A stretch of DNA of 64,000 nucleotides from Cryobacterium levicorallinum (lineage in GTDB: Bacteria; Actinomycetota; Actinomycetes; Actinomycetales; Microbacteriaceae), in the NCBI RefSeq assembly GCF_004402405.1, contig NZ_SOFE01000023.1, forward strand, positions 124,001 through 188,000, written 5' to 3'. Under the pieces are notes generated by a model, which was given only the letters and a program-made list of their open reading frames with translations, had not been told where the DNA came from and made no database searches. This document shows, in pieces, positions 37,787 through 61,711 of this stretch. The first letter of the stretch is position 1, and each line of letters starts with the position of its first letter. Both the position numbers and the translations under genes were made by a program.

Positions 37787-37865
37787 ATTTGTACACCTTC
37801 TGAGCCACCACGCCTCTTGCAGATCGAGGCGGCGCACCTCCGTGACGAAAGCGGAGGAGCGCGCG

Positions 37866-40800
37866 GTGACGGTGTCGATGCGGGTTATGAGTGCCGGCGA
37901 CGGGTACAAGTACCTGCTGCGCACGGTCGCCGCTGGTGACGGAAATCGCTCTTTATCGACGCCGCTTACCCGTTACTACACCGCGCAGGGCACGCCGCCG
38001 GGCCGGTGGATGGGCGGTGGACTTCCGGGTCTCGGCGGCGGTCTCGTCATCGAGGGTGACGTCGTCACGGAAGAGCAGCTGCAGCGGCTAATCGGATTGG
38101 GCCGCGACCCGGTAACAGGTGAGGCTCTCGGGCGGGCGTACCCGGTGTATCGGACTGCCGCAGATCGAGCCGCCCTCGGCCGGAGTGAAGACGGCGTCGA
38201 GCCGGGGTCCGGCGAGGGAGCATCCGCAGAGGAGGAGTCAGCTGGACAACGGCGCAGGGCAGTCGCCGGGTACGACTTCACGTTCTCGATTCCAAAGTCG
38301 GCGAGCGTCCTCTGGGGAATTGCCGACGCACCGACGCAGGCGCGCATCGCGGAGGCTCACCACGCGGCGGTTGCCGAGGTGATCGCGTTCATGGAGCGCG
38401 AGGTTGCGGCGACCAGAACCGGCACGACGGCGCAGGGCGGCGCCGTTGCGCAAGTCGATGTGACCGGACTGATCGCGACGGCCTTCGACCATTTCGACAG
38501 CCGGGCCGGCGACCCTCATCTGCACACGCACGTCGTGATCAGCAACAAAGTGCAGACCGTGCTCGACGGCAAGTGGCGCTCGCTCGATGGCCGGCCCATG
38601 CACGAGGCCGTGGTTGCGCTCTCCGAACTGCACGAGACCCTGTTCGCAGACGCACTTACGCGATCGATGGGCGTGCAGTGGGAGAAGCGGGAGCGCGGTC
38701 GGGACCGCCACCCCGCGTGGGCGGTCAGCGTTGTTCCCGAAGCGCTCGTCGCGGAATTCTCGTCGAGATCCCGGCACATCGATGTCGAGACCGACCGGTT
38801 GATCGAGGCATACATGGCGAGCCACGGGCGTCGCCCGAACCCGGTGACAATCATGAAACTGCGCGCGCAGGCCACGCTTTCCACTCGGCCGGTCAAGCAA
38901 GTGCACTCCCTGGCAGACCTCACGGCTGCGTGGCGAGCACGCGCAAAGCTCGTGCTCGGGCGCGACGCGTCGGCGTTGGCGAGTGCGGCATCCGCTCACC
39001 CGTCTGCGCTGGTGCTGCGCGCCGAGGACGTGCCTCGCGAGGAGGTCGATGCGCTGGCGTTCAGCGTGATGACGGCCGTCAGTGAGAAGCGCGCAACCTG
39101 GCGGCACTGGAACCTCACGGCCGAGGCAGCGCGCCAAACGATGCAGTACCGCTTCGCATCCGCTTCGGATCGAGAGGCTGTTGTCGGGCTCATAACGGAT
39201 GCTGCCGAGCGCGCGTCGTTGCGCATCACACCACCCGAGCTGGCCTCGAGCCCTGCCGCATTCCAACGTGACGACCTCACGTCCGTCTTTCGACCAAAGC
39301 ACTCCACCGTGTTTACCTCGACTGAGTTGCTCGACGCGGAGTCTCGGCTGCTCGAGCGGGCCGCTGACGAGAACGGACCACGAGTCGCGGCGACGACACT
39401 GCGGTCGGCCGCGCGCACGAAGCTGCCGGGCGGGGGAGTGCTCGCCGACGGCCAGCTTGCGGCGCTGTTGTCGATCGTCGGCTCGGGTCGAGTGATTGAT
39501 GTGCTCGTGGGGCCGGCTGGCGCAGGCAAGACGACGGCCATGTGCGTGCTTCGGCTCGCATGGGAGGAGGCGCACGGTGCGGGCTCTGTGGTCGGCCTTG
39601 CACCCTCGGCGGCGGCCGCGACGGTATTGGCGACTGACCTCGGAATCACGACTGAGAACCTGGCGAAGTGGTGGCAGACCCATCGCGACCATGGAGAGAC
39701 GTTTCGGGCCGGGCAGCTCGTGATCATCGACGAGGCATCGTTGGCGGGCACGCTGCCACTGGATCGAATCACCGCGCTGGCCGCTAATGCCAACGCGAAG
39801 GTTCTGCTGGTGGGCGACTACGCCCAGCTTCAGTCGGTTGATGCTGGCGGCGCGTTTTCGATGCTGGTGCATGATCGACCGGATGCGCCAGAGCTCATTG
39901 ACGTGCACCGGTTCGCGCACGAGTGGGAGAAGACGGCGTCCCTCGGACTGCGTCAGGGCAACTCCGAGGTGATCGATCTTTATGGCGTGCACGACCGCCT
40001 GCGCGATGGCACCACCGAAGCGATGGCGGATGCCGCCTATGAGGCCTGGCGCACAGACACCCGAGCCGGCAAGGAGACCGTGCTGATCAGTGACTCAAAC
40101 GAGGCGGTCGCATCACTGAATGTGCGCGCTCGAACGGAACTGATCCTAGAGGGTCAGGTCGATGCGCTGCGCGAAGTCGCGCTACATGACGGAACCCGTG
40201 CCGCGGTCGGGGACACGGTGATCACGCGCCGGAACGATCGCCGGCTCTACGCGTCCCGAACGTGGGTGCGCAACGGCGACCGGTGGGCCGTGATCGACGT
40301 GCACCGGAACGGTTCGGTCGAAGTGCGGCGGCACGGGCGGCGGTGGGGGAGCACCGTGCTGCTTCCCGCCGAGTACGTGCGCGAACACCTTGAACTGGGC
40401 TACGCGGTCACCTCCCACCGTGCGCAGGGAATCACGACCGATACTGCGCACGTCGTCGTTGCGCCAACCATGCCACGAGAGAACCTCTACGTCGCGATGA
40501 CGCGCGGTCGCGAGGCGAACACCGCCTACGTCGCCGTCGACCGGCCCGATGTCGCCCACGTGGGGCCGCGCCCCGGTGACGATGGCGACGTGACGGCGCG
40601 CAGCATCCTCTTCGGCATTCTGCAGCACGTCGGTGCCGAGCTGTCCGCACACGAAAGCATCGCCGCGGAGCAGGACGCGTGGGGATCGGTGGCGCAACTC
40701 GCGGCAGAGTATGAGACCATCGCGGCGGCCGCGCAGCACGACCGATGGGTGTCGGTGGTGCGCGCGAGCGGGCTCTCGCCGGGCCAGGCCGACGCGGTCA

Positions 40801-41411
40801 TCCACTCGGATGCCTTCGGGCCATTCACCGCAGAGCTCCGGCGAGCCGAGGCCCACTATGTCGACATTGCAAACCTCCTGCCGCGCGTGGTTGCGGCCCG
40901 CGGGTTCGAGGATGCCAAGGACATCGCGGCGGTTCTGCGAGCCAGAGTGGCAGCGGTCTTGTCTCGGAACGGCGGAGCGGGGCGATCGCGCCGCGCTCCG
41001 CGCCTTATCGCCGGGCTGATCCCTCGTGCGATCGGGCCAATGGATGCCGCCATGCACCAGGCGTTGGTTGAGCGAAACGACCTGATCGAGTCGCGAGCGA
41101 GCGCAGTGCTTGACGAGGCGTTGCTCGCGGGGGAGCCGTGGACTCGAGCGCTCGGCACCGCGCCGCGCGGGTCTGCAGCCGTCGCGTGGCACCAAAACGG
41201 ATGCGCTGTCGCGGCCTACCGCGACCGCTACGGCATCGTTGGCGCCAGGGCGCTCGGTGCGGTACCGGAATCGACGGCACAGAAGCTGGATGCCGCGCGC
41301 GCTCGTGCCGCGCTCGAAGGTGCGCAGCGCCTCGCGGAAGAACGCTCCGCCCGCGATGTGCCCCGACCCGCCGTCAATTTAAAGCTTCCGCGGGCGGGCA
41401 TCCGGTTCTAA
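37866..41411 (+). CDS. traA: MobF-family relaxase-helicase (TraA/TrwC-like)
   Basis: A 1181-residue conjugative relaxase. GTG 37866 is chosen because GGAGGAG (37853-37859) precedes it by six bases; a GTG at 37842 is less likely. The TrwC domain has a Tyr pair near 37-38 (RYYTAQG), FSIPKSASVLWG and the HxHxH-type metal site DPHLHTHVV (about 216-224). The helicase half has Walker A VGPAGAGKTT, DEASLAG and SHRAQGIT (UvrD C2-like). It nicks oriT, stays attached to the transferred strand and unwinds DNA. It is separated from the T4SS operon by the restriction cargo. Confidence 0.93.
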   Translation: MTVSMRVMSAGDGYKYLLRTVAAGDGNRSLSTPLTRYYTAQGTPPGRWMGGGLPGLGGGLVIEGDVVTEEQLQRLIGLGRDPVTGEALGRAYPVYRTAADRAALGRSEDGVEPGSGEGASAEEESAGQRRRAVAGYDFTFSIPKSASVLWGIADAPTQARIAEAHHAAVAEVIAFMEREVAATRTGTTAQGGAVAQVDVTGLIATAFDHFDSRAGDPHLHTHVVISNKVQTVLDGKWRSLDGRPMHEAVVALSELHETLFADALTRSMGVQWEKRERGRDRHPAWAVSVVPEALVAEFSSRSRHIDVETDRLIEAYMASHGRRPNPVTIMKLRAQATLSTRPVKQVHSLADLTAAWRARAKLVLGRDASALASAASAHPSALVLRAEDVPREEVDALAFSVMTAVSEKRATWRHWNLTAEAARQTMQYRFASASDREAVVGLITDAAERASLRITPPELASSPAAFQRDDLTSVFRPKHSTVFTSTELLDAESRLLERAADENGPRVAATTLRSAARTKLPGGGVLADGQLAALLSIVGSGRVIDVLVGPAGAGKTTAMCVLRLAWEEAHGAGSVVGLAPSAAAATVLATDLGITTENLAKWWQTHRDHGETFRAGQLVIIDEASLAGTLPLDRITALAANANAKVLLVGDYAQLQSVDAGGAFSMLVHDRPDAPELIDVHRFAHEWEKTASLGLRQGNSEVIDLYGVHDRLRDGTTEAMADAAYEAWRTDTRAGKETVLISDSNEAVASLNVRARTELILEGQVDALREVALHDGTRAAVGDTVITRRNDRRLYASRTWVRNGDRWAVIDVHRNGSVEVRRHGRRWGSTVLLPAEYVREHLELGYAVTSHRAQGITTDTAHVVVAPTMPRENLYVAMTRGREANTAYVAVDRPDVAHVGPRPGDDGDVTARSILFGILQHVGAELSAHESIAAEQDAWGSVAQLAAEYETIAAAAQHDRWVSVVRASGLSPGQADAVIHSDAFGPFTAELRRAEAHYVDIANLLPRVVAARGFEDAKDIAAVLRARVAAVLSRNGGAGRSRRAPRLIAGLIPRAIGPMDAAMHQALVERNDLIESRASAVLDEALLAGEPWTRALGTAPRGSAAVAWHQNGCAVAAYRDRYGIVGARALGAVPESTAQKLDAARARAALEGAQRLAEERSARDVPRPAVNLKLPRAGIRF

Positions 41412-42294: not shown

Positions 42295-43527
42295 ATGAAC
42301 GACTCATCTCAGGAGAACGCGGCGTCGCGGAAGTCACTGGCGGAGCATCCGTCTGACAGTGATGCGGAGGCCGAGAAGAGGCGCCAGTATGTGGCGGCGA
42401 ACCGCGACCGCATTCGCGAGATGAACCGGCTCTGGCGAGCGGAACACCTTGAGCGCGCTCGGCAGATCAATCGCGACTCGGAGCGTCGAGCCGCGGCACG
42501 CCGGCATCGCGAGACGGAAGTGCGTGCCCGGGGGAGGGAACGTGCGAAACGCTGGCGGGAAGTGCACCCCGACCGCCGGCGCGAGTATCAGCAGCGGTGG
42601 GTGGAGGAGAATCGCGCGAAGGTCAGGGAGTATTACAACCGCTACTACGAGGCCCACCGCGACGACGTGAACGCCCGGGCCGCGGCCAGGCGGGATGCGG
42701 ATCCCGACCGCACGAAGCAGATCAGCAAGGAGTGGGCCGACCGCAACAAGGAGCGCCGTGCCGAGTTGCAGCGAACCCGGCGTAGCGACCCGGAGACTTA
42801 CCAGTCGGAACTGGAAGTCAACGCCGCAGCGAGACGACTCAAGCGCAGTCTGAGCCGGGCCGGCCTCCCGCCGAAGCGACTCCATCCGACGACGGCCGCC
42901 GAGCGGCGTGTAGACGAGCGCGAGGCTGACGCCTATTTCAATGACCTGTCGCGGCCCGAGCACCTACGGCAGTTCACGGTGTTCGCCGAATCGCTGACCG
43001 AGCACATGCTCAAGAACGGCGCCCGTATGCGCGAATTCGCCGAAGCCTACGTGGAGAACCGGGCGCGCATTGGGCTCCCGACGGTGCCGGTGGAGAACAT
43101 CGTCTATGCCCGCGCTGTCGAGCTCGTCGTCGAGTGGATGCGCCGGGTCGACCTCCTGACGAGCCGCGACGTCGCCGCGGCCGTGCGAAGTACGAAGGCC
43201 GAGGTCCGGCGTGCAGAGCGCCAACAGCAGTTCGATCGACTTGTGAAGACTGTCGTGGCGCAGGTGCAACGCAACAGTGCACGGTACGTCGTCGATGCTG
43301 AGATCGAGAACCGGGCACGGGCTCACCAGGGTAAACCGCGTGCGTCGGTCGAGTCCTTGGTTGTGCAGCTTGCCATGGAGGAAGTCATTGAGCGCGTGCC
43401 TACGAGCAGTCTGACGATCGAGGATGCTCGGACGGCAGCGCGTGTTGCGAGGCTGCGAGTCTCGATTTCGGACCAAGCCCGCCTGAATGCGGGTGTCGAT
43501 CGGATTCAGCGACAGCCGTTCGGGTAG
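42295..43527 (+). CDS. Arg/Glu-rich repeat protein of the ICE
   Basis: A 410-residue, very charged protein. Residues 20-175 are built of about seven repeats of roughly 22-26 residues with the pattern Tyr/Trp-x5-8-Asn/His-Arg-x3-Arg-Glu (for example RERAKRWREVHPDRRREYQQ, YYNRYYEAHRDDVNARA). The C-terminal half is a structured helical domain with paired motifs (PTVPVENIVYARAVELVVEW and PRASVESLVVQLAMEEVIE). A diverged copy of its last 75 codons lies at 48083-48319. DNA or RNA binding is plausible from charge; no function is known to me. Confidence 0.6.
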   Translation: MNDSSQENAASRKSLAEHPSDSDAEAEKRRQYVAANRDRIREMNRLWRAEHLERARQINRDSERRAAARRHRETEVRARGRERAKRWREVHPDRRREYQQRWVEENRAKVREYYNRYYEAHRDDVNARAAARRDADPDRTKQISKEWADRNKERRAELQRTRRSDPETYQSELEVNAAARRLKRSLSRAGLPPKRLHPTTAAERRVDEREADAYFNDLSRPEHLRQFTVFAESLTEHMLKNGARMREFAEAYVENRARIGLPTVPVENIVYARAVELVVEWMRRVDLLTSRDVAAAVRSTKAEVRRAERQQQFDRLVKTVVAQVQRNSARYVVDAEIENRARAHQGKPRASVESLVVQLAMEEVIERVPTSSLTIEDARTAARVARLRVSISDQARLNAGVDRIQRQPFG

Positions 43528-43952
43528 CTGACCAGTGCCGTGTCAAACTGCTTCAACGCAGCGGGACGATCGGACCGGAGGCCGACAATTCGCCGATCGG
43601 TGCGTCCACGATCGAATGGTAATTCTGGGACAGACGGTTCAGGCAGGCCTGGTTCAGCCTGCTCGGTCTATCGGTGGCGCCTTCGTGCGGCAACGTCCCA
43701 TGAGTGTCGACGTGCTGGGCACTCCACTGGCGGCCGACCTTACTTGTCGGATAAGCGGGTCAAAGAATCGAGCGTTATGGATGCGCCAAGAGCCGTCGTG
43801 AACCGATTTCGAGGTACCGTACTGCCGCATCAAACAGACGGTATGGACGGGTCGCCAGTTGGACTTGTCCTCAGGACGGCCAATCCAACTGCATGATGGG
43901 CTCTGCGTCGCTGTTTCGATGTAGTCCATCGATCGTCGGGCGTTCGTGTGGC
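43528..43952. other. Intergenic region between convergent genes
   Basis: No frame here is supported by a ribosome-binding site or family-like sequence on either strand. The stretch separates the rightward 410-residue gene from the leftward Avs-like gene and is the left edge of a cargo insertion. Confidence 0.35.
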
Positions 43953-48075: not shown

Positions 48076-48082
48076 ATACGGC

Positions 48083-48319
48083 ATGGACGCTGAAATTGAG
48101 AACCGGGCACGAGCCGGTCACGGAAAAACACGTGAGCCAGTCGAGGCGCTGGTCATGCGGCTGGCGATGCAAGAGGTAATTGAGCACGTGCCCACGACGC
48201 GTCTCACGATCGAGGATGCAAGAAGCGCTGTTCGCGTCGCGATGCTGCGCATACGGATGCCCTTTCAGGTTCGCTCGGACGCGGTCGACGACCGGGTTCA
48301 TCGAGGGCCGGTCAGGTAG
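48083..48319 (+). pseudogene. 3' remnant of a homologue of the 42295-43527 gene
   Basis: The 78-residue reading DAEIENRARAGHGKTREPVE, then MRLAMQEVIEHVPTTRLTIE aligns without gaps to the last 75 residues of the 410-residue protein (DAEIENRARAHQGKPRASVE, VQLAMEEVIERVPTSSLTIE). Identity is moderate at DNA level (roughly 70 percent by eye), so it derives from a related element, not a recent duplication. It directly follows the integrase 5' remnant on the same strand. Confidence 0.72.
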
Positions 48320-48457
48320 CCCACTCGGCATATCCGGCTCCTTCCACCAGAAAGGAGGCCGCAGGAATTCAGGGACGGTCCAGCGCTCGTTGCGATGGGT
48401 TCACCGCATTAGAGCAAGCCCGCCCACGCCTTCGATTTCGAGTTCGGAGCGGTAGCG
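48320..48457. other. Leader of the nuclease-repeat gene
   Basis: An AAAGGAGG-like run occurs at 48352-48358 but no start codon follows at usable spacing. The bases before the TTG at 48458 include GGTAGCGT, a possible -10 box (48451-48456), which would make the mRNA nearly leaderless. No other feature is visible. Confidence 0.3.
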
Positions 48458-51400
48458 TTGGCACATGTTTGTATCGACGACGACCCTGGGCCTCCACCGA
48501 TTGGGGCGTGGGCGGGGCATTCCCGAGCGGCCGCTGGTCTCGCGGTACGACTCGTGAGCCTCACAGAGCACCTGGCGGATTCCGGCTCACCGGTACGCGC
48601 GTACATCGACGGAATCTCGCCGATTCTTTTGGCCTTACAGGGCGGAACTGGCGGGTCGCGTGCAGCGGCCGACACGCTGGGCCTTATCGAACTTGCGGCG
48701 AGCAGCGCGATCATCCCGCCCCTCCCCGGAGTGGATGTCGCACGAGCGGGAACGGCAGTCGACTTCCGTGTACGCATCGCGCTCGGTGGATTCGATGCTC
48801 ATGACTCGGTCGCAGCCCTTGGCATCGATGAGCTGTCGCTGCGCCAGGGTGAATTCGAAAACGGCGCCCACCGGGCGAAGGTCCTCTCTGAGGCGTTCGA
48901 CGTGGCCGTGCAGATTCTCGAGAATCCCTCCAGCGAAGCCGACCTCGACCGTGCGGCGCTCTTGCTCGCCCACTGCGAACAGATCCATCGCGACATGATC
49001 GAAGTGCTGAAAGGGTCTGTCGGGAAGGCCAGCGATCTTGCGACCGACGGACAGGACTTCGCGGTCGGCCTCGACACGCCCTCTCTGGCAGACCTTCGCT
49101 CGATGATGGAGTCCAACAGCGCTCAGATCGACTTATGGCGGGAGCAGATAGCCAACGGTGACCGCTTCGAGCCGAACCCTGTATTCGCGGGCTCGAGGCT
49201 CGTTGGTGGCGCGGATGCCGACTGGCTCGTCGGGGGCGTACTCATTGACAGCAAGGCCTACGCGGAGCTCACCGTTCCGAAGCTGCGAGCCTTCCTAAGG
49301 CAGCTTCTCGGCTACGTCATGCTCGACCTCGATGACTCCCTACACATCCGGACCGTAGGCGTCTGGCTCCCCAGGCAAGGCCTGACGAGGACGTGGGAGC
49401 TCGAGATGCTGCTCGGTGGAGACCCTGAGGAGCTATTGCTAGCGCTTCGGCAGAGGTTTGCGAAGGCTGCAGGCGGTCAGCAGATCGGGATCCGCGTCCC
49501 GGTCACCCAGCACCGCAAGGACCAGATCCTCGCCGACAACAAGAACACACCACGCCACATGCTCATCGACTTGGCTCGGAGCATCGACGCGGGCATCCGC
49601 TTCCGCATCGGGCGGAACGCGATGGTCCCCGAGGAGACGATGCGAGAACTCGCTCGGGACAGGTACGCCTCAGTCCGCGAAGGCGTGGCGGGGAATGAAA
49701 GCGCACCGACGGATGTGCTCGCAGCGCTCTCCCAAGACAACAGCGTCGTCGTCCGACGGACGGTCGCCGCCAACCCCCGCACGCCAAAACCTCAACTAAA
49801 GGCGTTGGGGCAGGCTCCCGTCGACGGAAGTTCTTCCGAGACGCAGCTTGCCATCGAGTCGGTGACCGGCGATGAGGTCGCTCAGCCCCGCTCGTCGGGG
49901 CGCGCCGTCGTGCGCGTCGCGCAGGACCGCGATGACCTGGCGCTCGAAACGCGATGGTTTATGGAGTTCCTAGCTCTATCGAGGGGCGGCTTCCCGAGAG
50001 GCCTCGGCGTCCGCATCCCTCTCCCGATGGCCAGTCAGTACTGGGCATCGGTACTGGGACGATCGACCTACGCCCCCGATTGGCTGACGGCGGGCTTCCC
50101 CGACATAGTGAAGAACGACCTCATGCGTACGGACCGCCCGGCGTGGGTGCGGCAGATATTCGCCCTGGAGTTGCCCGTCTCGGACTCCTCAGTTCGGGAC
50201 AGGCTCCTCGCGGACGCCGATCCCTTGATCCGCTGGTCGGCGCTTCAGCGCACGGTCGACGTCCCGGACGATGTCCTCGGCGCTCTGCTCGGTGAGCTCG
50301 CCGCTTCTCGGAAGGAGCGCATCCGGTTCCGGACGGAGGGAGACCGGCCGATGTGGGCGCGCACCCGCACCCCGGCCGAGTACGACAAGGAGACCCTGCG
50401 ACTCGTCGCAACCCACCCCTCGACGCCTCTCGCGGAGCTCCGAGAGCTCTTGGGAACGAAATCGGTTGACGTCCTCGTGGGACTGATCGAGAACCCGTCT
50501 CTTCCTACCGACGACCTCGCCCTTATCTTGCCACGACTGCGCTCAACAAAGTCCTTTGAGCCCCGCGAACGACTCGCTGCCTCGAGCAGGATCCCCTCCG
50601 CAGCCGCGAGACTGCTCGTCGACGACCGAGATGCCCGAGTACGCATAGCGCTCTCGCGGAACGAAGCAGCGCCCTCCGAGGCACTGGTTAGCCTGGCAGA
50701 GGACCAGGAACCGTCCGTCCGCTTGGCTGTTATATCAAACCCGAGTGCGCCCGTCGCCCTCGCGGCCTCCATTGCTGGGCCCCTCCTCGAGACAAGCACG
50801 GACGAGGAGTTGTTCGACGTGCTAAACGCGGTCGCGACACGCACCGACATTGAGCTGACCGACGAACTGTTTGAGGACGCGCTCGGAAGACTGTCCAAAA
50901 GCCGCGTTCGCGACCCGGACATGCGCCGGATCGCAGCCGACGACGAACGCACAGGAGCTCGGACCCTGGCGCGGCTCGCCAAGAGTACCGACGAGTCCGT
51001 GCGCAGCGCCGTCGCGGGTAATTCTCGCACGCCGTCTGAGACTCTTTCAGTGCTGGCTGCCGATCCGGTTCATAATGTGCGAGCGGCCGCAGCGGGCAAC
51101 GAGGGACTGGACACCGCCCTGCTTGTTACGCTCGCGTACGATGACGATCCTTTGGTGCGGGCACGAGCCGCGGGATGCCCGCGGCTCGGTACTGCTGTGC
51201 TGGGCGCATTGCTCTTAGACGACGACAGATCCGTGCGGTCAGCCGCGTTCAAGAACCCCGCGACGAGCACCGAGGACCGCGATCACGCCGGGGCCGCTTG
51301 GGAGCAGGCGTATCTGGCCTCGGGCCCGAGCAGAGCCGACCTCGAGGAGACGGTCGCCAGCAAGCGCGCGGAAGTGCGGATACAGGTCGCATTTGACCGA

Positions 51401-51808
51401 CGCACGCCCTCAGATTTTCTCGTTCTCCTCGGCGGGGAGCGGCGTAGCGCCCAAGTGCGGCGCGCAGTCGCGGCGAACCCGAACACGCCTGCGACCTTCC
51501 TGGCGTCGCTCGCCGACGACGCGGACACAGAGGTGCGCCAGGCGGTTGCATTCAACAGCGCGACGCCGCGCGAAGTCCTCGCCAAGCTCGCCGGCACCAG
51601 CATCGACCTTGCGCTCTTGGTCGCGATGAATCCGGACGCGCCGCTTGGACTCATCGACGCCCTCGTCGAGGATGGCGATCCGCTTGTAGGCTACGTCGCC
51701 GCAGGAGTTCGGGCTACTCGTGCAGCTTTGACCGAAGGCGGGGTACCGGGCACGTCGAGAGCCGACGCACACAAGCATGAAACAGGCCACCCAATGATCC
51801 TGCCTTGA
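48458..51808 (+). CDS. PD-(D/E)xK-like protein with leucine-rich-variant repeats
   Basis: An 1116-residue protein. Residues 235-300 carry a restriction-endonuclease-like motif: SRLVGGADADWLVGG (D253, D255), then VLIDSKAY (D264-x-K266) and FLRQLLGYVMLDLDD, whose Gln282 sits where many PD-(D/E)xK nucleases have a helix Gln/Tyr. From about 395 to 1090 there are about 25 variant leucine-rich repeats of roughly 24 residues (for example VREGVAGNESAPTDVLAAL, VRRTVAANPRTPKPQLKAL, VRSAVAGNSRTPSETLSVL). The N-terminal 230 residues are unrecognised. The TTG start lacks a ribosome-binding site. It sits between an Avs-like gene and Gabija, so defence is inferred. Confidence 0.7.
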   Translation: MAHVCIDDDPGPPPIGAWAGHSRAAAGLAVRLVSLTEHLADSGSPVRAYIDGISPILLALQGGTGGSRAAADTLGLIELAASSAIIPPLPGVDVARAGTAVDFRVRIALGGFDAHDSVAALGIDELSLRQGEFENGAHRAKVLSEAFDVAVQILENPSSEADLDRAALLLAHCEQIHRDMIEVLKGSVGKASDLATDGQDFAVGLDTPSLADLRSMMESNSAQIDLWREQIANGDRFEPNPVFAGSRLVGGADADWLVGGVLIDSKAYAELTVPKLRAFLRQLLGYVMLDLDDSLHIRTVGVWLPRQGLTRTWELEMLLGGDPEELLLALRQRFAKAAGGQQIGIRVPVTQHRKDQILADNKNTPRHMLIDLARSIDAGIRFRIGRNAMVPEETMRELARDRYASVREGVAGNESAPTDVLAALSQDNSVVVRRTVAANPRTPKPQLKALGQAPVDGSSSETQLAIESVTGDEVAQPRSSGRAVVRVAQDRDDLALETRWFMEFLALSRGGFPRGLGVRIPLPMASQYWASVLGRSTYAPDWLTAGFPDIVKNDLMRTDRPAWVRQIFALELPVSDSSVRDRLLADADPLIRWSALQRTVDVPDDVLGALLGELAASRKERIRFRTEGDRPMWARTRTPAEYDKETLRLVATHPSTPLAELRELLGTKSVDVLVGLIENPSLPTDDLALILPRLRSTKSFEPRERLAASSRIPSAAARLLVDDRDARVRIALSRNEAAPSEALVSLAEDQEPSVRLAVISNPSAPVALAASIAGPLLETSTDEELFDVLNAVATRTDIELTDELFEDALGRLSKSRVRDPDMRRIAADDERTGARTLARLAKSTDESVRSAVAGNSRTPSETLSVLAADPVHNVRAAAAGNEGLDTALLVTLAYDDDPLVRARAAGCPRLGTAVLGALLLDDDRSVRSAAFKNPATSTEDRDHAGAAWEQAYLASGPSRADLEETVASKRAEVRIQVAFDRRTPSDFLVLLGGERRSAQVRRAVAANPNTPATFLASLADDADTEVRQAVAFNSATPREVLAKLAGTSIDLALLVAMNPDAPLGLIDALVEDGDPLVGYVAAGVRATRAALTEGGVPGTSRADAHKHETGHPMILP

Positions 51809-52223: not shown

Positions 52224-53966
52224 TTACAGGGAGAGCTCGGTGACGAAGCGACTGACTGGATTCAGGTGCTTCCTGCCATAGCGATCCTGGGTGTACCCGC
52301 TCCAGAGCAGGTATACATGATCGCGTGCGCGTGTAACTGAAACGTAGAACTTACTCCGTTCCTCCGCAAGTTCCGCGTTGTTCTTGGTCGCGTAGTAGTG
52401 AGGTATTCGACCGTCCTCAAGGCCGAGTACGAATGTTCTGTCAAACTCCAGTCCCTTACTAGAAGTCAGAGTTGTGACATAGCACTTGCCTAAACTGACT
52501 CGCTTCTCTCCGAGCTCGGCAATTGTCTGGCCGACAAGTGAGCCGTCGCGTAACTCAGAAATAATCCCGAGCGATTCCTCTTCGATTTGTCTTCTTGCCT
52601 CCACCGCCGCCTCAAGCATTATTGAATCAAGAACCGTCTCGAGGAATTCAAGCGCGCCACTACCCGGAGCGGCGGCAAAGCCCACGGGCCAAATACCTCC
52701 AACACCGACCTCGCTTAGGCCCGGTATTGTTCTTTGGATGTCAGCGATGACTTCCGAGAGCGCGTGGCCCGACGAGTCCTGGCCATGAGCTACCCATGCG
52801 CATATTCGCTCCAAATCGATCGAGAGGGGCGTCTCCCAGCTGTCTTGTGCACGAAACCAGGCGGGCACACCCTGACGGTTCAGCGCAGAAGTAGTCTCTG
52901 CGGCGATGTCGTTGGTCGCACAGAAGATTCCGATCTCATGCAGAGACATCCCTTGCGCGGCAAGCGGCGCGATCTGAGCCGCTGCGAAGTTTGCTTGACC
53001 TAGTATTCCTCCAGCCACCTTATGCACAGTAATACTGCCACCGTCTCGCGGAGTGACGGGCATTTCACGCTCACCGAGGAGGCGACGGGTGGCCTTAACT
53101 AGTTGTTCGCCCGACCGGTAATTAGTGTTCAGTTTCCTTTTTGTGATTCCGGAGAGTTCCGCGAGCTCAAGCAGAAGTTTTGGGTTAGTCCCAGTCCAGC
53201 GGTAAATTGCTTGATCAGCGTCTCCGACCGCGAATAAAATCGAGCTTTCAGTATCGCTTGCGAACGAGAGGCTCCGCACTATCCGGTCAAGTCCTGGGGC
53301 GAGGTCCTGATACTCGTCTACATAGATGCGCGGGAACATTGAGCGAAGTCCTGTGGCTATCGAAGGCTCGCCCTCGACAAACTTGACAGCAGCCTCGACC
53401 ATGCCGTGGAAATCAATCACTCCCGCATGATTCATTTGACGGAAGAATGCATCGCGAGCCAATATTGGATATTTTCCCAAGCGCGACCACTCCGCGTCGT
53501 CAACGAGCAGACTTCGGAATTTGTTCACAGTCGACCGAAGGTTGGAGCGTTCGTCTGATGGCACCTTCGCCGAATCCAGGGCGTCGACCCAGAGGGCATC
53601 CAACTCCGCGCTCCGACAGATACGAACAGTGGCAAGACCGGGCTCACCAGCAGCGTGCGCAAATGGTCTGACGATGCGATTGAGCGCAAAGGAGTGGACG
53701 GTGCCCACAAAGAGGTTGGTACGCCTGTCGGAACTGATCGCCCCGAATCTTTGGCGCATCTCTAACGCGGCACCATTGGTCAGGGTGATACATGCCGCGC
53801 CCTGAGGCGCCGCGACCTCAGCTACGAGTGATTGCGCAAGCCGCGTGACAAGGAGCTTAGTCTTGCCACTTCCAGGCGGGGCCAGAACTACGCAATGGGA
53901 CTTCACATCGAAAGCATCTCGCTGCCAGCTATCCAGCTCTGATATTGCTGTCTCCAGCGGGTTCAT
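52224..53966 (-). CDS. gajB: Gabija GajB-like UvrD helicase
   Basis: A 580-residue SF1 UvrD/PcrA-type helicase. Walker A is APPGSGKTKLL (residues about 29-39), motif II RIYVDEYQDLAPG, motif IV-like NTNYRSGEQL, and motif V/VI TLTSSKGLEFDRTFVLGLE and FYVSVTRARDHVYLL. The ATG at 53966 overlaps the stop of the OLD-type nuclease gene (ATGA). In Gabija, GajB partners GajA and senses DNA termini or ssDNA. Gene order is gajA then gajB, the usual order. Confidence 0.87.
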   Translation of the reverse strand: MNPLETAISELDSWQRDAFDVKSHCVVLAPPGSGKTKLLVTRLAQSLVAEVAAPQGAACITLTNGAALEMRQRFGAISSDRRTNLFVGTVHSFALNRIVRPFAHAAGEPGLATVRICRSAELDALWVDALDSAKVPSDERSNLRSTVNKFRSLLVDDAEWSRLGKYPILARDAFFRQMNHAGVIDFHGMVEAAVKFVEGEPSIATGLRSMFPRIYVDEYQDLAPGLDRIVRSLSFASDTESSILFAVGDADQAIYRWTGTNPKLLLELAELSGITKRKLNTNYRSGEQLVKATRRLLGEREMPVTPRDGGSITVHKVAGGILGQANFAAAQIAPLAAQGMSLHEIGIFCATNDIAAETTSALNRQGVPAWFRAQDSWETPLSIDLERICAWVAHGQDSSGHALSEVIADIQRTIPGLSEVGVGGIWPVGFAAAPGSGALEFLETVLDSIMLEAAVEARRQIEEESLGIISELRDGSLVGQTIAELGEKRVSLGKCYVTTLTSSKGLEFDRTFVLGLEDGRIPHYYATKNNAELAEERSKFYVSVTRARDHVYLLWSGYTQDRYGRKHLNPVSRFVTELSL

Positions 53967-55666
53967 TTTGACGCCAATAGGTAGTCCAGCGACGCTTTGA
54001 CGTAACCCGGCACTTCGACCAGCTCTGATGCCAGGCGCTGCGCGAACCTCCCCTTGCCGCCAGCAACCACCACTTCACTTATGAGGCTGGACTTGGACGG
54101 CTTGCCATTCCATGCGCCGACCCGCGACCCGGTATTGCTACTACCCAATTCGACGAGGACTGAATCGACGATGGAGCCGTTTGCGCCCGTCGCGTATAGA
54201 TCAAGCTCGAGCGTATCGTCGCCGACGAACATCCCCAGGCTGGCGGGCGATGCGCCGCCGTAGTTATTCGCGCTGAAACGTGTGACTCGTGCCTGCCCTG
54301 CCGACACTGACTGCGCGTCGAGATCGCCGTCTGTCAAAAGGGCCCACGGAATTCCGAGTGCATCACAGAATTTAAGGTACGACTCGAAATGGGTTCCGTG
54401 GATTGCGCAGACCGATATTCCTTCCTTATCAAGATCGATATTCAGAATCGCGGCGAAGGCCGGTAGCAGTACCTCCTCCGCATAGCCCTCCACGAGCAGA
54501 ACTTTGTCCGCAAACACCATCTCTGCCTGGGTCGCATTTAGATAACGGTTCATGTCATCCCACTCTCGGCTTGAGAGCGCAGCACTTCGCGCCGAGAAAC
54601 CTGTCGATCCCGTCAACCCAGATTTGAGTCGAATCAGGTGTCGAGCATCAACTGCCGAAGCCACATGGGGAGAATGAGTGGTGACCACCATCGACGTCTG
54701 CCCGTCACGCGGAGTCAGATTTTCGAGAACCGCACGCTGCATATGTGGATGAAGGTGCGCCTCCGGCTCTTCCACCAGCAAAAGCGTGTGGCTCACAACC
54801 TTCTGAAGAATCTGTGCACGAAAGCCCATCTGCAAGAGCGCAAAGTAGAGGATGTTTTGCCCACCTAGACTCGCTGCAGATAAGCGTCGAGCGCGATCAC
54901 CGTCAATGTAAAGCTGCATCGCTCGCACAAGCCCTAAAGGTTCCGGCGGCGTGGATCGTAGCGTTGCGCCAAGTGACTGCCGGCGACCGACCGACCCTAA
55001 CAGCTCGGATTCCAAATCGGTAGATATCTGTTGGATCGGGCTCATGGATTGCAAAGTTGAATTTGCACTCTCGAGGTTCGCTCTGATCTGCTCCAACTGC
55101 TGCGGATCAAGCGCTTCGCTGGCTCCCTCAAGCAAAGACTTCAAAGGCGACTTTCTCCAAGAGCGAATGTCCCCCTCGACATCGCGTAACGCATGAAGAA
55201 ACGCGACGAAGATTTCTTCTCGTAAATCCGGGCCTACCCTTTTACCGGACCCGTTGCTTCCGAAATATACACCGTCGCGATACTTGTTTCCCTTGGTCGG
55301 ATCCGGAGCCCAGACGTAGGTCATTTCGGCACGAACGGGGGTCGTGGTTACTAACCCCTGAAACAGCACTGCTGCAATGCGTCCGTCATTTTGGAAGTCT
55401 GCGAACTGCAGTGTGATCGAAATTGTTTCGAGCGCCTTCATCGGCTCGTACGTAGGATCCCCTTTACGTAATCCATCCCAAAAATCGTCCGATGTCAACT
55501 TGCGTTCGGCATACGGCATAGCTGGATCAAGAACCAAGCGAATGGCATTTATGAGGTTGGTCTTCCCTGTGCGATTCTCGCCTACGACCACACTCACCTG
55601 CCCGAGCTCCAGATCGAGCCCATGAATGTTTCGGTAGTTGTGGACACGCACTCTTGAAAGTCGCAT
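53963..55666 (-). CDS. gajA: Gabija GajA-like OLD-family ATPase-Toprim nuclease
   Basis: A 567-residue protein. I use ATG 55666 (MRLSRVRVHNYRNIHGLDLE) since OLD proteins start there; the longer frame adds unrelated residues. The ABC/SMC-like ATPase has Walker A VVGENRTGKTNLINAI and signature/Walker B LLLVEEPEAHLHPH, then HSPHVASAV. The Toprim half has LLVEGYAEEVLLPAF (catalytic Glu) and LLTDGDLD (DxD). Length is close to the described GajA. It is a sequence-directed nicking nuclease activated when NTP falls. The two-gene operon is complete and intact. Confidence 0.9.
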   Translation of the reverse strand: MRLSRVRVHNYRNIHGLDLELGQVSVVVGENRTGKTNLINAIRLVLDPAMPYAERKLTSDDFWDGLRKGDPTYEPMKALETISITLQFADFQNDGRIAAVLFQGLVTTTPVRAEMTYVWAPDPTKGNKYRDGVYFGSNGSGKRVGPDLREEIFVAFLHALRDVEGDIRSWRKSPLKSLLEGASEALDPQQLEQIRANLESANSTLQSMSPIQQISTDLESELLGSVGRRQSLGATLRSTPPEPLGLVRAMQLYIDGDRARRLSAASLGGQNILYFALLQMGFRAQILQKVVSHTLLLVEEPEAHLHPHMQRAVLENLTPRDGQTSMVVTTHSPHVASAVDARHLIRLKSGLTGSTGFSARSAALSSREWDDMNRYLNATQAEMVFADKVLLVEGYAEEVLLPAFAAILNIDLDKEGISVCAIHGTHFESYLKFCDALGIPWALLTDGDLDAQSVSAGQARVTRFSANNYGGASPASLGMFVGDDTLELDLYATGANGSIVDSVLVELGSSNTGSRVGAWNGKPSKSSLISEVVVAGGKGRFAQRLASELVEVPGYVKASLDYLLASK

Positions 55667-55968
55667 GAATCTCAACATAGTGGGCGGATTGCTCCGATGT
55701 AGTACCCGGGGTATCGGCGCTAAGGATCCCCCACAAGTCTTTGGACCCGTGCAACGCTGACCCCAGCATGGCAACGTCACTTCAAAGCGCCAACCTGCCC
55801 TGGGCTCTGATTCAGCATTCGACGCGGCTGTGCCGATCAGTACGAGCCGACTATCGACGATTCCAAATCGTGATCGTCCGACGATTCCGATGGGAAGTCG
55901 ATCAATTGCGGCCGAGATGTCAAGCGGCGGGCCGGTCCCTGCCCCGGCGTGGCATTGAACTCAAAGCC
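55667..55968. other. Upstream region of the Gabija operon
   Basis: Holds the Gabija promoter on the minus strand, not resolvable by eye, and no supported gene. An open plus-strand frame from 55741 has no ribosome-binding site and Arg-rich composition for its first 75 codons. Confidence 0.3.
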
Positions 55969-58919: not shown

Positions 58920-59300
58920 TTGTCTGTACCGAAAGGGCAAGACTTGATGCACTATCCGTTTATTGGTCTTTTATTAAAAAATATCCACCATCTCCGGCCT
59001 CTCGTACGGAAGGTGCACGACCCGGTTCGGGTCATCTGGAATGACCTCGATCACCTATGGGTTATGGACAGCGAACGACACTTTGGGCTCGGCCTCGAGC
59101 TGGTTTTAACGACGAGCGAGCTCGCCGAGTACCTCGGCGTGCAGACGCAGGCGATCTACGATCTGCGTACCGACAGACGTGGTCCCTCGGGCATTCGAGT
59201 GGGCAGGGAGATTCGCTTCCGCGTTTCCGACGTGGTGCGGTGGCTCGATGGGCTCCACGAGCCAGAGACTCCCGTCGTCGACGAAGGGGCCAGGGGCTGA
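58920..59300 (+). CDS. Second excisionase-like protein (relic element)
   Basis: A 126-residue homologue of the protein at 1493 with the same HTH (LTTSELAEYLGVQTQAIYDL, IRVGREIRFRVSDVVRWLDG). The frame is intact and its stop overlaps the ATG of the truncated integrase. Differences are spread through the N-terminus (for example LLKNIHHLRPLVRKVHD), so it is a diverged element rather than a recent duplicate. It may still act on the shared att region. Confidence 0.78.
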   Translation: MSVPKGQDLMHYPFIGLLLKNIHHLRPLVRKVHDPVRVIWNDLDHLWVMDSERHFGLGLELVLTTSELAEYLGVQTQAIYDLRTDRRGPSGIRVGREIRFRVSDVVRWLDGLHEPETPVVDEGARG

Positions 59301-60074
59301 TGGCCGGACGACCACGTCTGCCAGTCAGCACGTTCGGCGCCATCACGACTCAACAAGTCGGTCCGGGAATCTTCCGGGCCATAACTCGCTTCCGGGACTG
59401 GGATGGTCAAACGCGGAGAGTGACGGCGACCGGACCGAGTCGTAACGCTCCGCAGGCGTCCCTCAAAGCAGAACTTGTCGACCGGCTGAGAGCCGGCGGC
59501 AGTGGCGACGCGCTCACGGCGAGTTCACCATTTGCGTTGCTCGCGGCCGCGTGGATGGAGGACGTGATGCTCGATGTCGACCGTTCCCAGGGCACGAAGG
59601 ACACCTATCAACGTCAGTTGCGCGTGCTTGTGCTGCCCTACTTCGAGAACTTTGCGATTCGGGAGGTGACCGTCGGTCGTATAGAGCTCTTCCTCAGGAA
59701 GCAGCGAGCGCAGTCGTATGCGCGGGCAAAGCACTCCCGCACAATCCTGGGCATGATCCTGGCGTTCGCGACGCGGCGGGAGATCATTCCGCGAAATCCG
59801 ATGAAGGAGACGTCGCGCATGAAGAGCCCTCCGCACACGCCGAAGGCGCTCACCCCCGACCAGATTGCCGCTATCCGCCTCGCAGCCCGTGAATGGCGCA
59901 CGGAGGAAGGCAGGATGGGGCCGCGGTCCGACGGCCAGGTGCGCGACATCATCGAGGTGATGCTCGGCACCGCCACGCGCATCGGAGAAGTGCTCGCCAT
60001 TCGGCAGTGCGACGTCGACTTGAAAGCCGACCCGCCGCGGGTGACCATCAGCGGCACGCTTGTCGTGCACAACA
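59300..60074 (+). pseudogene. Truncated second tyrosine integrase
   Basis: It matches the integrase at 1870 for about 258 residues (MAGRPRLPVSTFGAITTQQV to ISGTLVVHN), including the first catalytic Arg (GTATRIGE), and then homology stops. The HxxR and Tyr segments are gone, so it is inactive. The frame happens to stay open to 61369 because it runs antisense to the aldehyde dehydrogenase gene; that extension is not protein-like. A deletion joined the element to the chromosome near 60074. Confidence 0.88.
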
Positions 60075-60129
60075 AAGCACTAACAGGCGCAGTCCAACAC
60101 GTCGGCGGTTGGCATCGCACGGCTGCGCT

Positions 60130-60171
60130 AAAAAAGGGTGACCTCTGCGGCCTGTGCTGTCGCCGTCACCC
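60130..60171 (-). terminator. Intrinsic terminator of the aldehyde dehydrogenase operon
   Basis: On the minus strand, GGGTGAC (60171-60165) pairs with GTCACCC (60142-60136) and is followed by six T (60135-60130). This is a classic hairpin plus T tract, about 40 bases after the stop at 60212. The ICE relic boundary (near 60074) is just beyond it. Confidence 0.8.
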
Positions 60172-60211
60172 GTTGTTGTCGCGCTTGCGGAGGCGCATAT
60201 GGCGAATCGGG

Positions 60212-61711
60212 TCAGCGGATGCGGCGGTGCACCGACTGCACGCTGAGATACGCGCGCAGGCCCTCCGGACCGAATTCAGCCCCGAGGCCCGAGTCGTGGC
60301 GGCCAGCGAACGGCGCCGCGTGATTCGAGGCGAAGAACCCGAGGCCGACCGAGCCTGTGTCGAGCCGCGGAACCAGGGCGAACGCGGCATCGGGATCTTC
60401 GGAGAAGATCGTGCCGCCGAGGCCAAACGGGGTGTTGTTGGCGATCTGCACGGCCTCATCAACGGAGGAGTACCGCATGATCGAGAGCACCGGACCGAAA
60501 ATCTCCTCCTGGGCGATGCGCATGCCTGGCGTGACGTCGGCGAACACGGTGGGCTTGACGAAGAACCCCCGGTCAAAGCCGGAGGGAACATCGCCCCCGG
60601 TGGTGGCGCGAGCACCCTCGGCGAGGCCGCTGCGAATGTACCCGCGCACGACCTGTTCCTGGGCACGGGTAGCGGAGGGGCCGAACACCGTCGCGGGGTC
60701 CATCGGGTCGCCCTGAGGCGCTGCCGCAATCGTCGCGGTGACCATGTCGATGAGTTCGTCGTAACGTTCTGCCGGCGCGAGGATGCGCGTCGAGATATAG
60801 CAGGTCTGTCCGGTGTTGCGCATGCAACTGCGGATCAGCACCTCCGACATGGCCTCGAGGTCGACATCCGGCAGCACAAGCGCCGAGGACTTGCCCCCGA
60901 GCTCGAGCGTCACCGGGCGCAGCAGGGTTCCACACGCCGCCGCGATCGAGCGGCCGACGGGCGTGGACCCGGTGAAGGCGACTTTGTTGATGCCCGGGTG
61001 CTTCACGAGGGCGTCGCCGAAACTGCCCGGCCCGGTCACGAGGTTGATGACACCGGCCGGGATGCCGGCGGCGTCCGCGGCGTCGAGGATGAGCCGAACC
61101 GAGAGCGGCGTCGGAGAGGCCGGCTTGATCACGACGGTGCAGCCGGCCATCAGCGCCGGCGCGAGTTTGGCCACGACGAGGTTGATCGGAAAGTTCCAGG
61201 GCGCGATCAGCGCACAGACCCCGACCGGGTCGAGACGCACCATGGTTTCGGCCGATCCGTCGGGAAACGGGCGGATGTCGGGCCTCTCGAGCATCGGCGC
61301 GAGCGACGCGAAGTAGCGAAAGATCGAGGCTGCGTTCGCCGCCGCCTTCGACGTCTCCGAGACCGGTGACCCGTTCTCCCAAGTGTTGGTGTGCGAGATG
61401 GCCTCGGAACGCTTCTCGACTTCCGACGCCAGCCGGCGCACCAGCCTGGCGCGCTCCGCTGGAGCGACGTCGCGCCATCCGCTGCCTCCCGCGTTCGAAA
61501 TAGAGCTGTCGTTGCCTGTGAACGCGCGGCGGGCTGCGGCGACGGCCGCGTCGAGGTCGGCAACGGATGCCTGCGGCACCGACGCCCAGACCTCCCCGGT
61601 CGCCGGGTTGGTCACCTCGGTGCGCCCCACGCCGGTGGAGCGCTGCCAGGCACCGTCGATGAAGTGGTCGTCGGTGTGGGTGTACGGAAGTGTTGCCTGC
61701 AGCAGGGCCAT
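60212..61711 (-). CDS. NAD(P)-dependent aldehyde dehydrogenase
   Basis: A 499-residue ALDH oxidising aldehydes to acids in the cytosol. Motifs: PWNFPINL, cofactor region VIKPASPTPLS, catalytic Glu in LELGGKSSALV and nucleophile Cys in NTGQTCYIST, then EEIFGPVLSI. Length is standard. Its ATG overlaps the upstream HD gene stop (TGATG). It is the last gene of a ferredoxin / ferredoxin reductase / HD / ALDH operon, a set often linked to a cytochrome P450 or oxygenase outside the window. Confidence 0.92.
   Translation of the reverse strand: MALLQATLPYTHTDDHFIDGAWQRSTGVGRTEVTNPATGEVWASVPQASVADLDAAVAAARRAFTGNDSSISNAGGSGWRDVAPAERARLVRRLASEVEKRSEAISHTNTWENGSPVSETSKAAANAASIFRYFASLAPMLERPDIRPFPDGSAETMVRLDPVGVCALIAPWNFPINLVVAKLAPALMAGCTVVIKPASPTPLSVRLILDAADAAGIPAGVINLVTGPGSFGDALVKHPGINKVAFTGSTPVGRSIAAACGTLLRPVTLELGGKSSALVLPDVDLEAMSEVLIRSCMRNTGQTCYISTRILAPAERYDELIDMVTATIAAAPQGDPMDPATVFGPSATRAQEQVVRGYIRSGLAEGARATTGGDVPSGFDRGFFVKPTVFADVTPGMRIAQEEIFGPVLSIMRYSSVDEAVQIANNTPFGLGGTIFSEDPDAAFALVPRLDTGSVGLGFFASNHAAPFAGRHDSGLGAEFGPEGLRAYLSVQSVHRRIR

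What the first reader, a model, noticed from the sequence alone, without database searches (positions are those of the whole stretch)
48458..51808. Candidate new defence protein: PD-(D/E)xK-like site joined to a long leucine-rich-variant repeat array
The sequence shows D253/D255 and IDSK266 with a following RQLLGY helix, the arrangement of restriction-like nucleases. About 25 units of roughly 24 residues (AVA-N-TP-L pattern) follow. I know of no described antiphage system with this order. It lies between an Avs-like gene and Gabija. Nuclease activity and a repeat-based sensor role are inferred.
Basis: partly seen in the sequence, partly recalled or inferred. Interest (0 to 1): 0.8.

Follow-up and report, generated by a model that had tools for sequence, protein, structure and literature searches.

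The report
Nuclease fused to leucine-repeat solenoid
A rare gene found among bacterial antivirus genes encodes a predicted DNA-cutting domain joined to a long repeat scaffold, a combination not seen in the defence catalogue searched here, and is a good candidate for an untested single-gene antiphage system.

Summary
The observation largely holds. The gene probably runs 48554-51808 (+), from GTG 48554 rather than TTG 48458. D255, D/E264, K266, Q282 and Y286 are kept in every family row that covers them (39-40 rows); D253 varies. This is the (D)...(D/E)xK...QxxxY signature of RecB/Cas4-type PD-(D/E)xK nucleases. Four of four stand-alone relatives tested match PADLOC's RT-associated PD-(D/E)xK model (E 1e-3 to 7e-6; window copy 0.044). 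The rest matches Pfam LRV (3e-24); 25 units is not confirmed. The structure prediction of the nuclease part failed (pLDDT 39).

The domain also occurs alone and C-terminal to UvrD-type helicases. The LRV fusion looks single in origin (100/99); I found 7 intact and 4 broken copies in two genera of one family. Defence genes lie near 6 of 11 fusion copies (not all were scanned) and near 7 of 7 close stand-alone relatives. AAA_13 occurs in 5 of 18 carrier genomes, one gene each, all within 4 kb.

Best reading: a single-gene defence effector; the solenoid senses or grips a target and the nuclease cuts DNA. Activity, trigger and target are untested.

The parts
48554..51808 (+). Whole gene with the corrected start (GTG 48554; 1084 aa, stop at 51806-51808)
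   Evidence: L109, L113, L116, L119, L001 and L004 have ATG/GTG-AGCCT at this place; open frame
48554..49492 (+).
   Evidence: Alignments A1, A2; same unit found alone and at the end of UvrD-type helicases
49205..49255 (+). GGADADWLVGGVLIDSK: motif with D255, D264 (D or E) and K266
   Evidence: D255 in 39 of 39 rows with a letter there; D or E at 264 and K at 266 in 40 of 40
49301..49315 (+). QLLGY, the QxxxY motif of RecB/Cas4-type nucleases (name recalled)
   Evidence: Q282 and Y286 in 40 of 40 rows with a letter there; lines up with the Q..Y of RecB/AddB-type PDDEXK_1 in a profile alignment
49526..49792 (+). First LRV block (about residues 357-445)
   Evidence: Unit-HMM hits at 329-341 (weak), 374-397 and 400-412 in 1084-aa numbering; many short LRV proteins match about residues 356-437; not resolved in the model
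49793..50257 (+). Middle stretch without clear LRV units (about residues 446-600)
   Evidence: No unit-HMM hit above zero bits; low pLDDT; highest dN/dS of the three parts in 2 of 3 pairs
50258..51733 (+). Main LRV solenoid (about residues 601-1092)
   Evidence: PF01816 and PF25591; helical solenoid, block pLDDT 57-85 over model residues 611-1060 except 781-800; 1lrv among the structural matches, Z 11.1
52224..53966 (-). Neighbour: GajB (Gabija helicase)
   Evidence: PADLOC GajB E=5.6e-130
53963..55780 (-). Neighbour: GajA (Gabija; model match begins at residue 39)
   Evidence: PADLOC GajA E=1.6e-160; OLD-like TOPRIM PF20469
43953..47879 (-). Neighbour: 1308-aa P-loop protein, Avs-like only by general make-up
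   Evidence: AAA_16 E=0.004, below its cut-off; no Avs model listed at E<=1

Best explanation
A single-gene accessory defence protein. The N-terminal domain is a RecB/Cas4-type PD-(D/E)xK DNA nuclease (shown: conserved signature, weak profile links; inferred: activity, and DNA as substrate, the latter from the joining of the same domain to UvrD-type helicases). The C-terminal LRV alpha-solenoid (shown: family match, near-constant length) binds an infection-borne or foreign component and holds the nuclease off, or places it on its target, so that binding lets the nuclease cut DNA (inferred). In this genome it stands as its own transcription unit next to Gabija.
For: Signature kept in every family row that covers it, 39-40 rows; RTasPDDEXK matches at 6.8e-6, 8.9e-6, 1.2e-5 and 1.1e-3 in 4 of 4 stand-alone relatives given, PDC-S61 at 1.4e-6 in one; profile alignment to PDDEXK_1 scores 24.8 against a maximum of 18.7 in 40 column shuffles and pairs the D-x-K and Q..Y motifs; LRV family match; fusions in one clade, 100/99; dN/dS 0.12-0.31 (nuclease) and 0.20-0.29 (LRV part with the middle stretch) in three pairs; patchy presence, 5 of 57 in its genus and 17 of 247 in a second genus, 8 of these distant; defence genes near 6 of 11 fusion copies and near 7 of 7 close stand-alone relatives; AAA_13 genes in carrier genomes lie within 4 kb of the nuclease gene, 5 of 5.
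Against: No reliable fold: the nuclease model has pLDDT 38.7. The window copy itself scores only E=0.044 against RTasPDDEXK. The profile alignment has a probability of just 3.1% and spans 44 columns. Of the three families counted in carrier genomes, 18 of 21 GmrSD_N copies and 5 of 7 OLD-TOPRIM matches are not near the gene, and the families were picked after being seen nearby. No known defence gene was found near five fusion copies: L119 (two large neighbours scanned, none matched), L001 (short contig, one neighbour scanned), and L113, L114, L112 (no neighbour scanned). LRV proteins are common: most of the 136 matching genomes of 398 hold only short LRV stretches. No relative was found in phage or viral collections, apart from a weak link to an uncharacterised phage family.
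Confidence: 0.55

Rival explanations
1. The protein is one part of a larger system and works with a separate ABC-type ATPase (PDC-S06 AAA_13 family or a Gabija-like OLD ATPase), which senses the infection; the LRV array is a docking scaffold for that partner.
For: PDC-S06 lies near 5 carriers with gaps of 12, 139, 221, 525 and 3310 bases. The stand-alone row nearest the LRV clade, L082, lies 139 bases upstream of its PDC-S06 gene on the same strand. Gabija lies near the window copy and near L065.
Against: The arrangement differs: divergent in two, convergent in one, same strand in two of which one is two genes apart. 13 of 18 carrier genomes have no AAA_13 match. The gene in the window has no same-strand partner: the large genes on both sides are on the other strand.
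Confidence: 0.2
2. An accessory DNA-processing or repair nuclease of mobile elements that is carried in islands without a defence role; the LRV part is a general binding scaffold.
For: The same domain is joined to UvrD-type helicases on Streptomyces linear plasmids, in L033 and L035 about 1 kb from the record end. Serine recombinases, judged by eye from the protein starts, lie near L113, L116 and L120; a relaxase and an integrase-like ORF lie in the window.
Against: Where neighbours of the LRV clade and its close relatives were scanned, they mostly include defence genes; 4 of 11 fusion copies are broken, which fits a costly accessory gene but does not prove defence.
Confidence: 0.17
3. A nuclease-type fold without DNA cleavage, or one that acts on RNA, used for binding or regulation.
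For: No confident fold and no activity data.
Against: The catalytic letters are kept across sequences as low as about 25-30% identity, which is hard to explain without catalysis.
Confidence: 0.08

Closest known systems
PADLOC RTasPDDEXK (PDLC03797), filed under DRT (defence reverse transcriptases)
   Same: Weak but repeated profile match over the catalytic part: E 6.8e-6, 8.9e-6, 1.2e-5 and 1.1e-3 in four stand-alone relatives, 0.009-0.052 in three LRV fusions including the window
   Different: No reverse-transcriptase model was listed for the neighbours scanned, but not every neighbour was scanned; here the domain is joined to an LRV array or stands alone
RecB/AddB-type nuclease domains (PF12705, PDDEXK_1)
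   Same: (D/E)xK followed by a QxxxY motif; domain placed after a UvrD-type helicase in Streptomyces, as recalled for RecB/AddA
   Different: No Pfam match; own N-terminal region with G98, D102, R106 and R178 kept in 26 of 26 rows
LRV proteins (PF01816; solved example 1lrv)
   Same: Repeat family and probable alpha-solenoid fold
   Different: Here an N-terminal nuclease-type domain precedes the array; no title or abstract start listed in eight paper searches described such a fusion
phrog_34041 (phage family of unknown function)
   Same: E=1.5e-5 with the stand-alone relative L006 over its residues 203-331, catalytic part included
   Different: Window copy only E=0.052; function unknown; not followed up
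Gabija (GajAB), direct neighbour
   Same: Same island; Gabija also lies near the stand-alone relative in L065
   Different: Different proteins; no OLD or helicase family in this protein
PDC-S06 (AAA_13 candidate defence ATPase of PADLOC)
   Same: Recurrent neighbour, 5 carriers
   Different: Not found in the window and not in 13 of 18 carrier genomes

Membership tests
PD-(D/E)xK nuclease superfamily | Catalytic D...(D/E)xK signature | tested here: met
   D255 in 39 of 39, D or E at 264 and K266 in 40 of 40 rows with a letter there; 43 domain hits examined, the rest are fragments without these columns
PD-(D/E)xK nuclease superfamily | Statistical relation to a known member family | tested here: inconclusive
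   RTasPDDEXK E down to 6.8e-6 in relatives but 0.044 for the window copy; hhalign to PDDEXK_1 above 40 of 40 shuffles but probability 3.1%; no Pfam match
PD-(D/E)xK nuclease superfamily | Alpha/beta core fold | tested here: inconclusive
   AlphaFold2 on 3 sequences, pLDDT 38.7; strand-helix-strand-strand order from residue 224 of the model is as expected but not trustworthy, and is absent from the full-length model
PD-(D/E)xK nuclease superfamily | Metal-dependent nuclease activity | not testable with these tools
   Needs purified protein
RecB/Cas4-type branch | QxxxY motif after (D/E)xK | tested here: met
   Q282 and Y286 in 40 of 40 rows with a letter there
Leucine-rich repeat variant (LRV, PF01816) | Profile match above the curated cut-off | tested here: met
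   83.9 bits, cut-off 21.6; 7 stretches
Leucine-rich repeat variant (LRV, PF01816) | Alpha-solenoid fold like 1lrv | tested here: inconclusive
   1lrv Z 11.1, rmsd 14.3 over 221 residues, among many other helical repeats of like score
Avs/STAND NTPases | P-loop NTPase domain between effector and repeats | tested here: not met
   No NTPase family listed for this protein at E<=1
Antiphage defence system | Located among known defence genes more than by chance | tested here: met
   10 of 33 genes or matches of three families in 18 carrier genomes within 10 kb, about 0.2 expected at random positions; the families were chosen after the fact
Antiphage defence system | Protects cells from phage | not testable with these tools
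   Needs a phage challenge
DRT (defence reverse transcriptase) systems | Reverse transcriptase gene in the same locus | tested here: inconclusive
   None listed for the neighbours scanned, but not every neighbour was scanned; in distant relative L058 the gene just upstream looks by eye like a group II intron reverse transcriptase, not a defence one

The most novel reading that the evidence does not exclude
A previously undescribed one-protein immune sensor: the LRV solenoid itself recognises a phage component (or a DNA end or structure) and directly switches on the fused RecB-like nuclease, with no NTPase and no second gene. It would give long LRV arrays a function, and be one branch of a nuclease family that defence islands have reused alone, with helicases and with solenoids.
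Probability: 0.3. Interest if true: 0.78.

Novelty: new variant of a known kind. Interest (0 to 1): 0.58.

Why it matters
If true, defence islands hold an unannotated nuclease family (no Pfam or NCBIfam match) that has been joined to different partners, and LRV arrays, common in bacteria and mostly without known function (recalled), gain a testable role as sensors. The gene is compact and stands alone, so a phage challenge with catalytic mutants would decide quickly.

Tried and rejected
Structure route: both AlphaFold2 jobs had only 3-4 permitted rows; the nuclease part is unusable, so no fold search was made with it. Viral scans with A1 and A2 found no confirmed relative (0 of 356 and 0 of 5 pattern matches); the INPHARED phages gave none for two queries. 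PDB sequence searches: none for the protein; one chance-level helical hit at E=0.82 for A2. LRV-only matches in plasmids (Deinococcus, Allomeiothermus, Synechocystis, Aeromonas, Nostoc) were looked at; the two proteins scanned (Deinococcus, Synechocystis) listed no nuclease family; two loci (Allomeiothermus, Synechocystis) also carry MoxR and VWA-like genes; not followed. The eLife 2020 conflict-systems paper (PMC7159879; a term search with one passage shown) has no occurrence of LRV. For all other papers I saw search listings only; no listed title or abstract start described this fusion; most subscription papers are outside the library. Variable repeat number rejected: seven intact copies keep similar length (1040-1084 aa) and register, though the LRV part is less conserved than the nuclease part in 21 of 21 pairs, with or without the middle stretch. 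Promoter scan: 0 found, 0.4 expected; terminators 2 found, 2.2 expected.

Limits of the counts: I chose by eye which neighbours went to the family models; neighbours of L113, L114 and L112 were not given, and those of the distant relatives (L083-L088, L121-L128, Streptomyces loci) were not scanned. L112 is a remnant without an LRV part; I count it with the fusions because its nuclease remnant resembles the window copy. L064, counted among the stand-alone copies, is itself broken. Of 43 domain hits, 26 rows entered the alignment and 17 shorter or weaker ones were dropped; one search went back to these. The Poisson value of 3e-14 assumes families chosen beforehand and independent genomes; neither holds (G1286 and G1295 are near-copies), so I do not use it. 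The large genome searches scored only the best 2-9 first-look candidates per genome, so weak relatives may be missed.
Full report
What is there. The likely start is GTG 48554: six of six relatives printed (L109, L113, L116, L119, L001, L004) have ATG or GTG followed by AGCCT at that position. The protein is then 1084 aa. Large neighbours on both sides are on the other strand, so it stands as its own unit.

Nuclease domain. Residues 33-345 match no Pfam or NCBIfam family. Of 43 domain hits in the loci held, 26 well-covered rows (window included) were aligned: D253, D255, K266, Q282, Y286 and D290 are the same in 26 of 26, and position 264 is D in 22 and E in 4. Adding back the 17 dropped rows, D255 is kept in 39 of 39 rows with a letter there, D/E264, K266, Q282 and Y286 in 40 of 40, while D253 is D in 30 of 38. 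So D255, not D253, is the likely catalytic aspartate. The pattern D...(D/E)xK followed by QxxxY is that of RecB/Cas4-type PD-(D/E)xK nucleases (recalled). Four of four stand-alone relatives given match PADLOC's RTasPDDEXK, E 6.8e-6, 8.9e-6, 1.2e-5 and 1.1e-3, one also PDC-S61 at 1.4e-6; three LRV fusions score 0.009 to 0.052, the window copy 0.044. The stand-alone relative L006 also matches phrog_34041, a phage family of unknown function, at 1.5e-5; the window copy at 0.052. A profile-profile alignment with RecB/AddB-type domains (PF12705 matches fetched) pairs D-x-K with D-x-K and Q..Y with Q..Y, score 24.8, against at most 18.7 in 40 column shuffles and 15.0 reversed; its own probability is only 3.1%. 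AlphaFold2 gave pLDDT 38.7, so the fold is unproven.

Repeats. PF01816 matches at 3.4e-24 with 7 stretches. A unit HMM made from 16 strict units gives 14 hits in the window copy, 6 of them above 8 bits, and 11-14 hits in seven intact copies. The full-length model is of use only over the solenoid (block pLDDT 57-85 over residues 611-1060 except 781-800; 31 helices in 607-1061), which resembles helical repeats including 1lrv (Z 11.1); helical repeats commonly score like that. Length is nearly constant between copies (1040-1084 aa). In 21 of 21 pairs the LRV part is less identical than the nuclease part, with or without the middle stretch. dN/dS in three pairs is 0.12-0.31 for the nuclease part and 0.20-0.29 for the LRV part including the middle stretch; the middle stretch alone has 0.30-0.64. 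Both main parts are under purifying selection.

Family. The same domain occurs alone and C-terminal to UvrD-type helicases in Streptomyces and relatives. A tree of the 26 rows puts the 9 LRV fusions in one clade (100/99) and four helicase-type rows in another (96/95); the nearest stand-alone row to the LRV clade is L082 (98/96). Long branches make distant placements unsure. Frequency: 5 of 57 genomes of the window's genus; 17 of 247 of a second genus, 9 strong and 8 distant; 14 of 394 drawn from the class; 9 of 396 from the order; 8 of 396 from the phylum; these samples overlap. Named carriers of the fusion are Cryobacterium sp. MLB-32 and PH31-AA6, both broken copies. Of 11 copies counted as fusions, 7 are intact (window, G164, G1143, G1350, G1295, G1304, G1294) and 4 are split, truncated or remnant (L001, L002, L114, L112); L112 retains no LRV part.

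Surroundings. Fusion copies: the window has Gabija; L052 has PDC-S06 and DUF3800; L002 has PDC-S06, a NACHT protein and a caspase-type protein; L109 has Dsr1 and AbiD; L115 has PDC-S06; L116 has NsnA/PD-T4-2_A (GmrSD_N), HEPN and a cytosine methylase. That is 6 of 11. In L119 two large neighbours gave no match, in L001 one neighbour gave none on a short contig, and neighbours of L113, L114 and L112 were not scanned. Close stand-alone copies: L064 (itself broken) and L082 PDC-S06, L065 Gabija; L081 type I restriction and GmrSD_N; L117 Fic and PIN-TPR-GreABC, L118 DUF1156 and DUF499, L120 GmrSD_N with HNH, Mrr and EcoRI-type methylase: 7 of 7, counting Fic, PIN-TPR-GreABC and DUF499/DUF1156 as defence-like on recalled knowledge.

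Count against position. In 18 carrier genomes AAA_13 was found in 5, one gene each (six match rows, two of them in one gene), and all 5 lie near the nuclease gene, with gaps of 12, 139, 221, 525 and 3310 bases. GmrSD_N: 3 of 21 copies within 10 kb. OLD-TOPRIM: 2 of 7 matches. Together 10 of 33, where about 0.2 would be expected at random positions. The families were chosen after I had seen them nearby and defence genes cluster anyway, so this supports residence in defence islands, not a partnership.

Mechanism. Most likely the LRV solenoid recognises something that infection brings and the nuclease then cuts DNA. DNA is inferred from the helicase-joined copies and the RecB-like signature. The main rival is that a separate ATPase (PDC-S06 or an OLD protein) senses the infection and the LRV part docks to it; the variable arrangement and the lack of an AAA_13 match in 13 of 18 carrier genomes argue against an obligate pair. 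A non-defence DNA-processing role cannot be excluded.

Novelty. No model of PADLOC 2023, Pfam, NCBIfam or PHROGs covers the fusion as a whole, and no title or abstract start listed in eight paper searches describes it (the library lacks most subscription journals). It is a new variant: a known kind of nuclease with a known kind of repeat in a combination I did not find described.

Noticed in passing
window 43285-43528 and 48077-48320: A 244-base stretch from the end of the 410-aa ORF 42295-43527 (no Pfam family) recurs at 69% identity just upstream of the nuclease-LRV gene, so related sequence flanks the 1308-aa P-loop gene on both sides.
   Followed up: partly
window 27582-61369: Island make-up: HKD+Snf2-type helicase, type III restriction-modification (31540-36509), MobF/TrwC relaxase (37842-41411), Gabija, and an ORF with a phage-integrase central-domain match (59057-61369, partly overlapping an aldehyde dehydrogenase on the other strand, so its full extent is uncertain). 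It may be an integrated mobile element.
   Followed up: partly
L117:8625-9320 and L065:10651-11349: Two stand-alone nuclease copies are followed on the same strand by the same gene of about 232 aa with no family match, 76% identical over 225 residues: a possible two-gene unit.
   Followed up: partly
L033, L035, L036, L053-L055: UvrD-type helicase with this nuclease domain at its C-terminus in Streptomyces and relatives; L033 and L035 lie about 1 kb from linear plasmid ends. In L035 helicase and nuclease lie in two overlapping ORFs.
   Followed up: partly
L067:6890-10474 and L068:6356-14720: LRV proteins on plasmids near MoxR ATPase and VWA-like genes (Allomeiothermus; Synechocystis pSYSA, there also close to cas genes).
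   Followed up: no
L001:486-3820 and L002:10192-11637: In Cryobacterium MLB-32 the fusion gene is split into two ORFs that overlap by four bases; the PH31-AA6 copy loses frame at about the same place but is also truncated.
   Followed up: partly
L006:1504-2454: This stand-alone relative matches phrog_34041, a phage protein family of unknown function (E=1.5e-5), so phages may carry the domain although the viral and phage scans found no relative.
   Followed up: no
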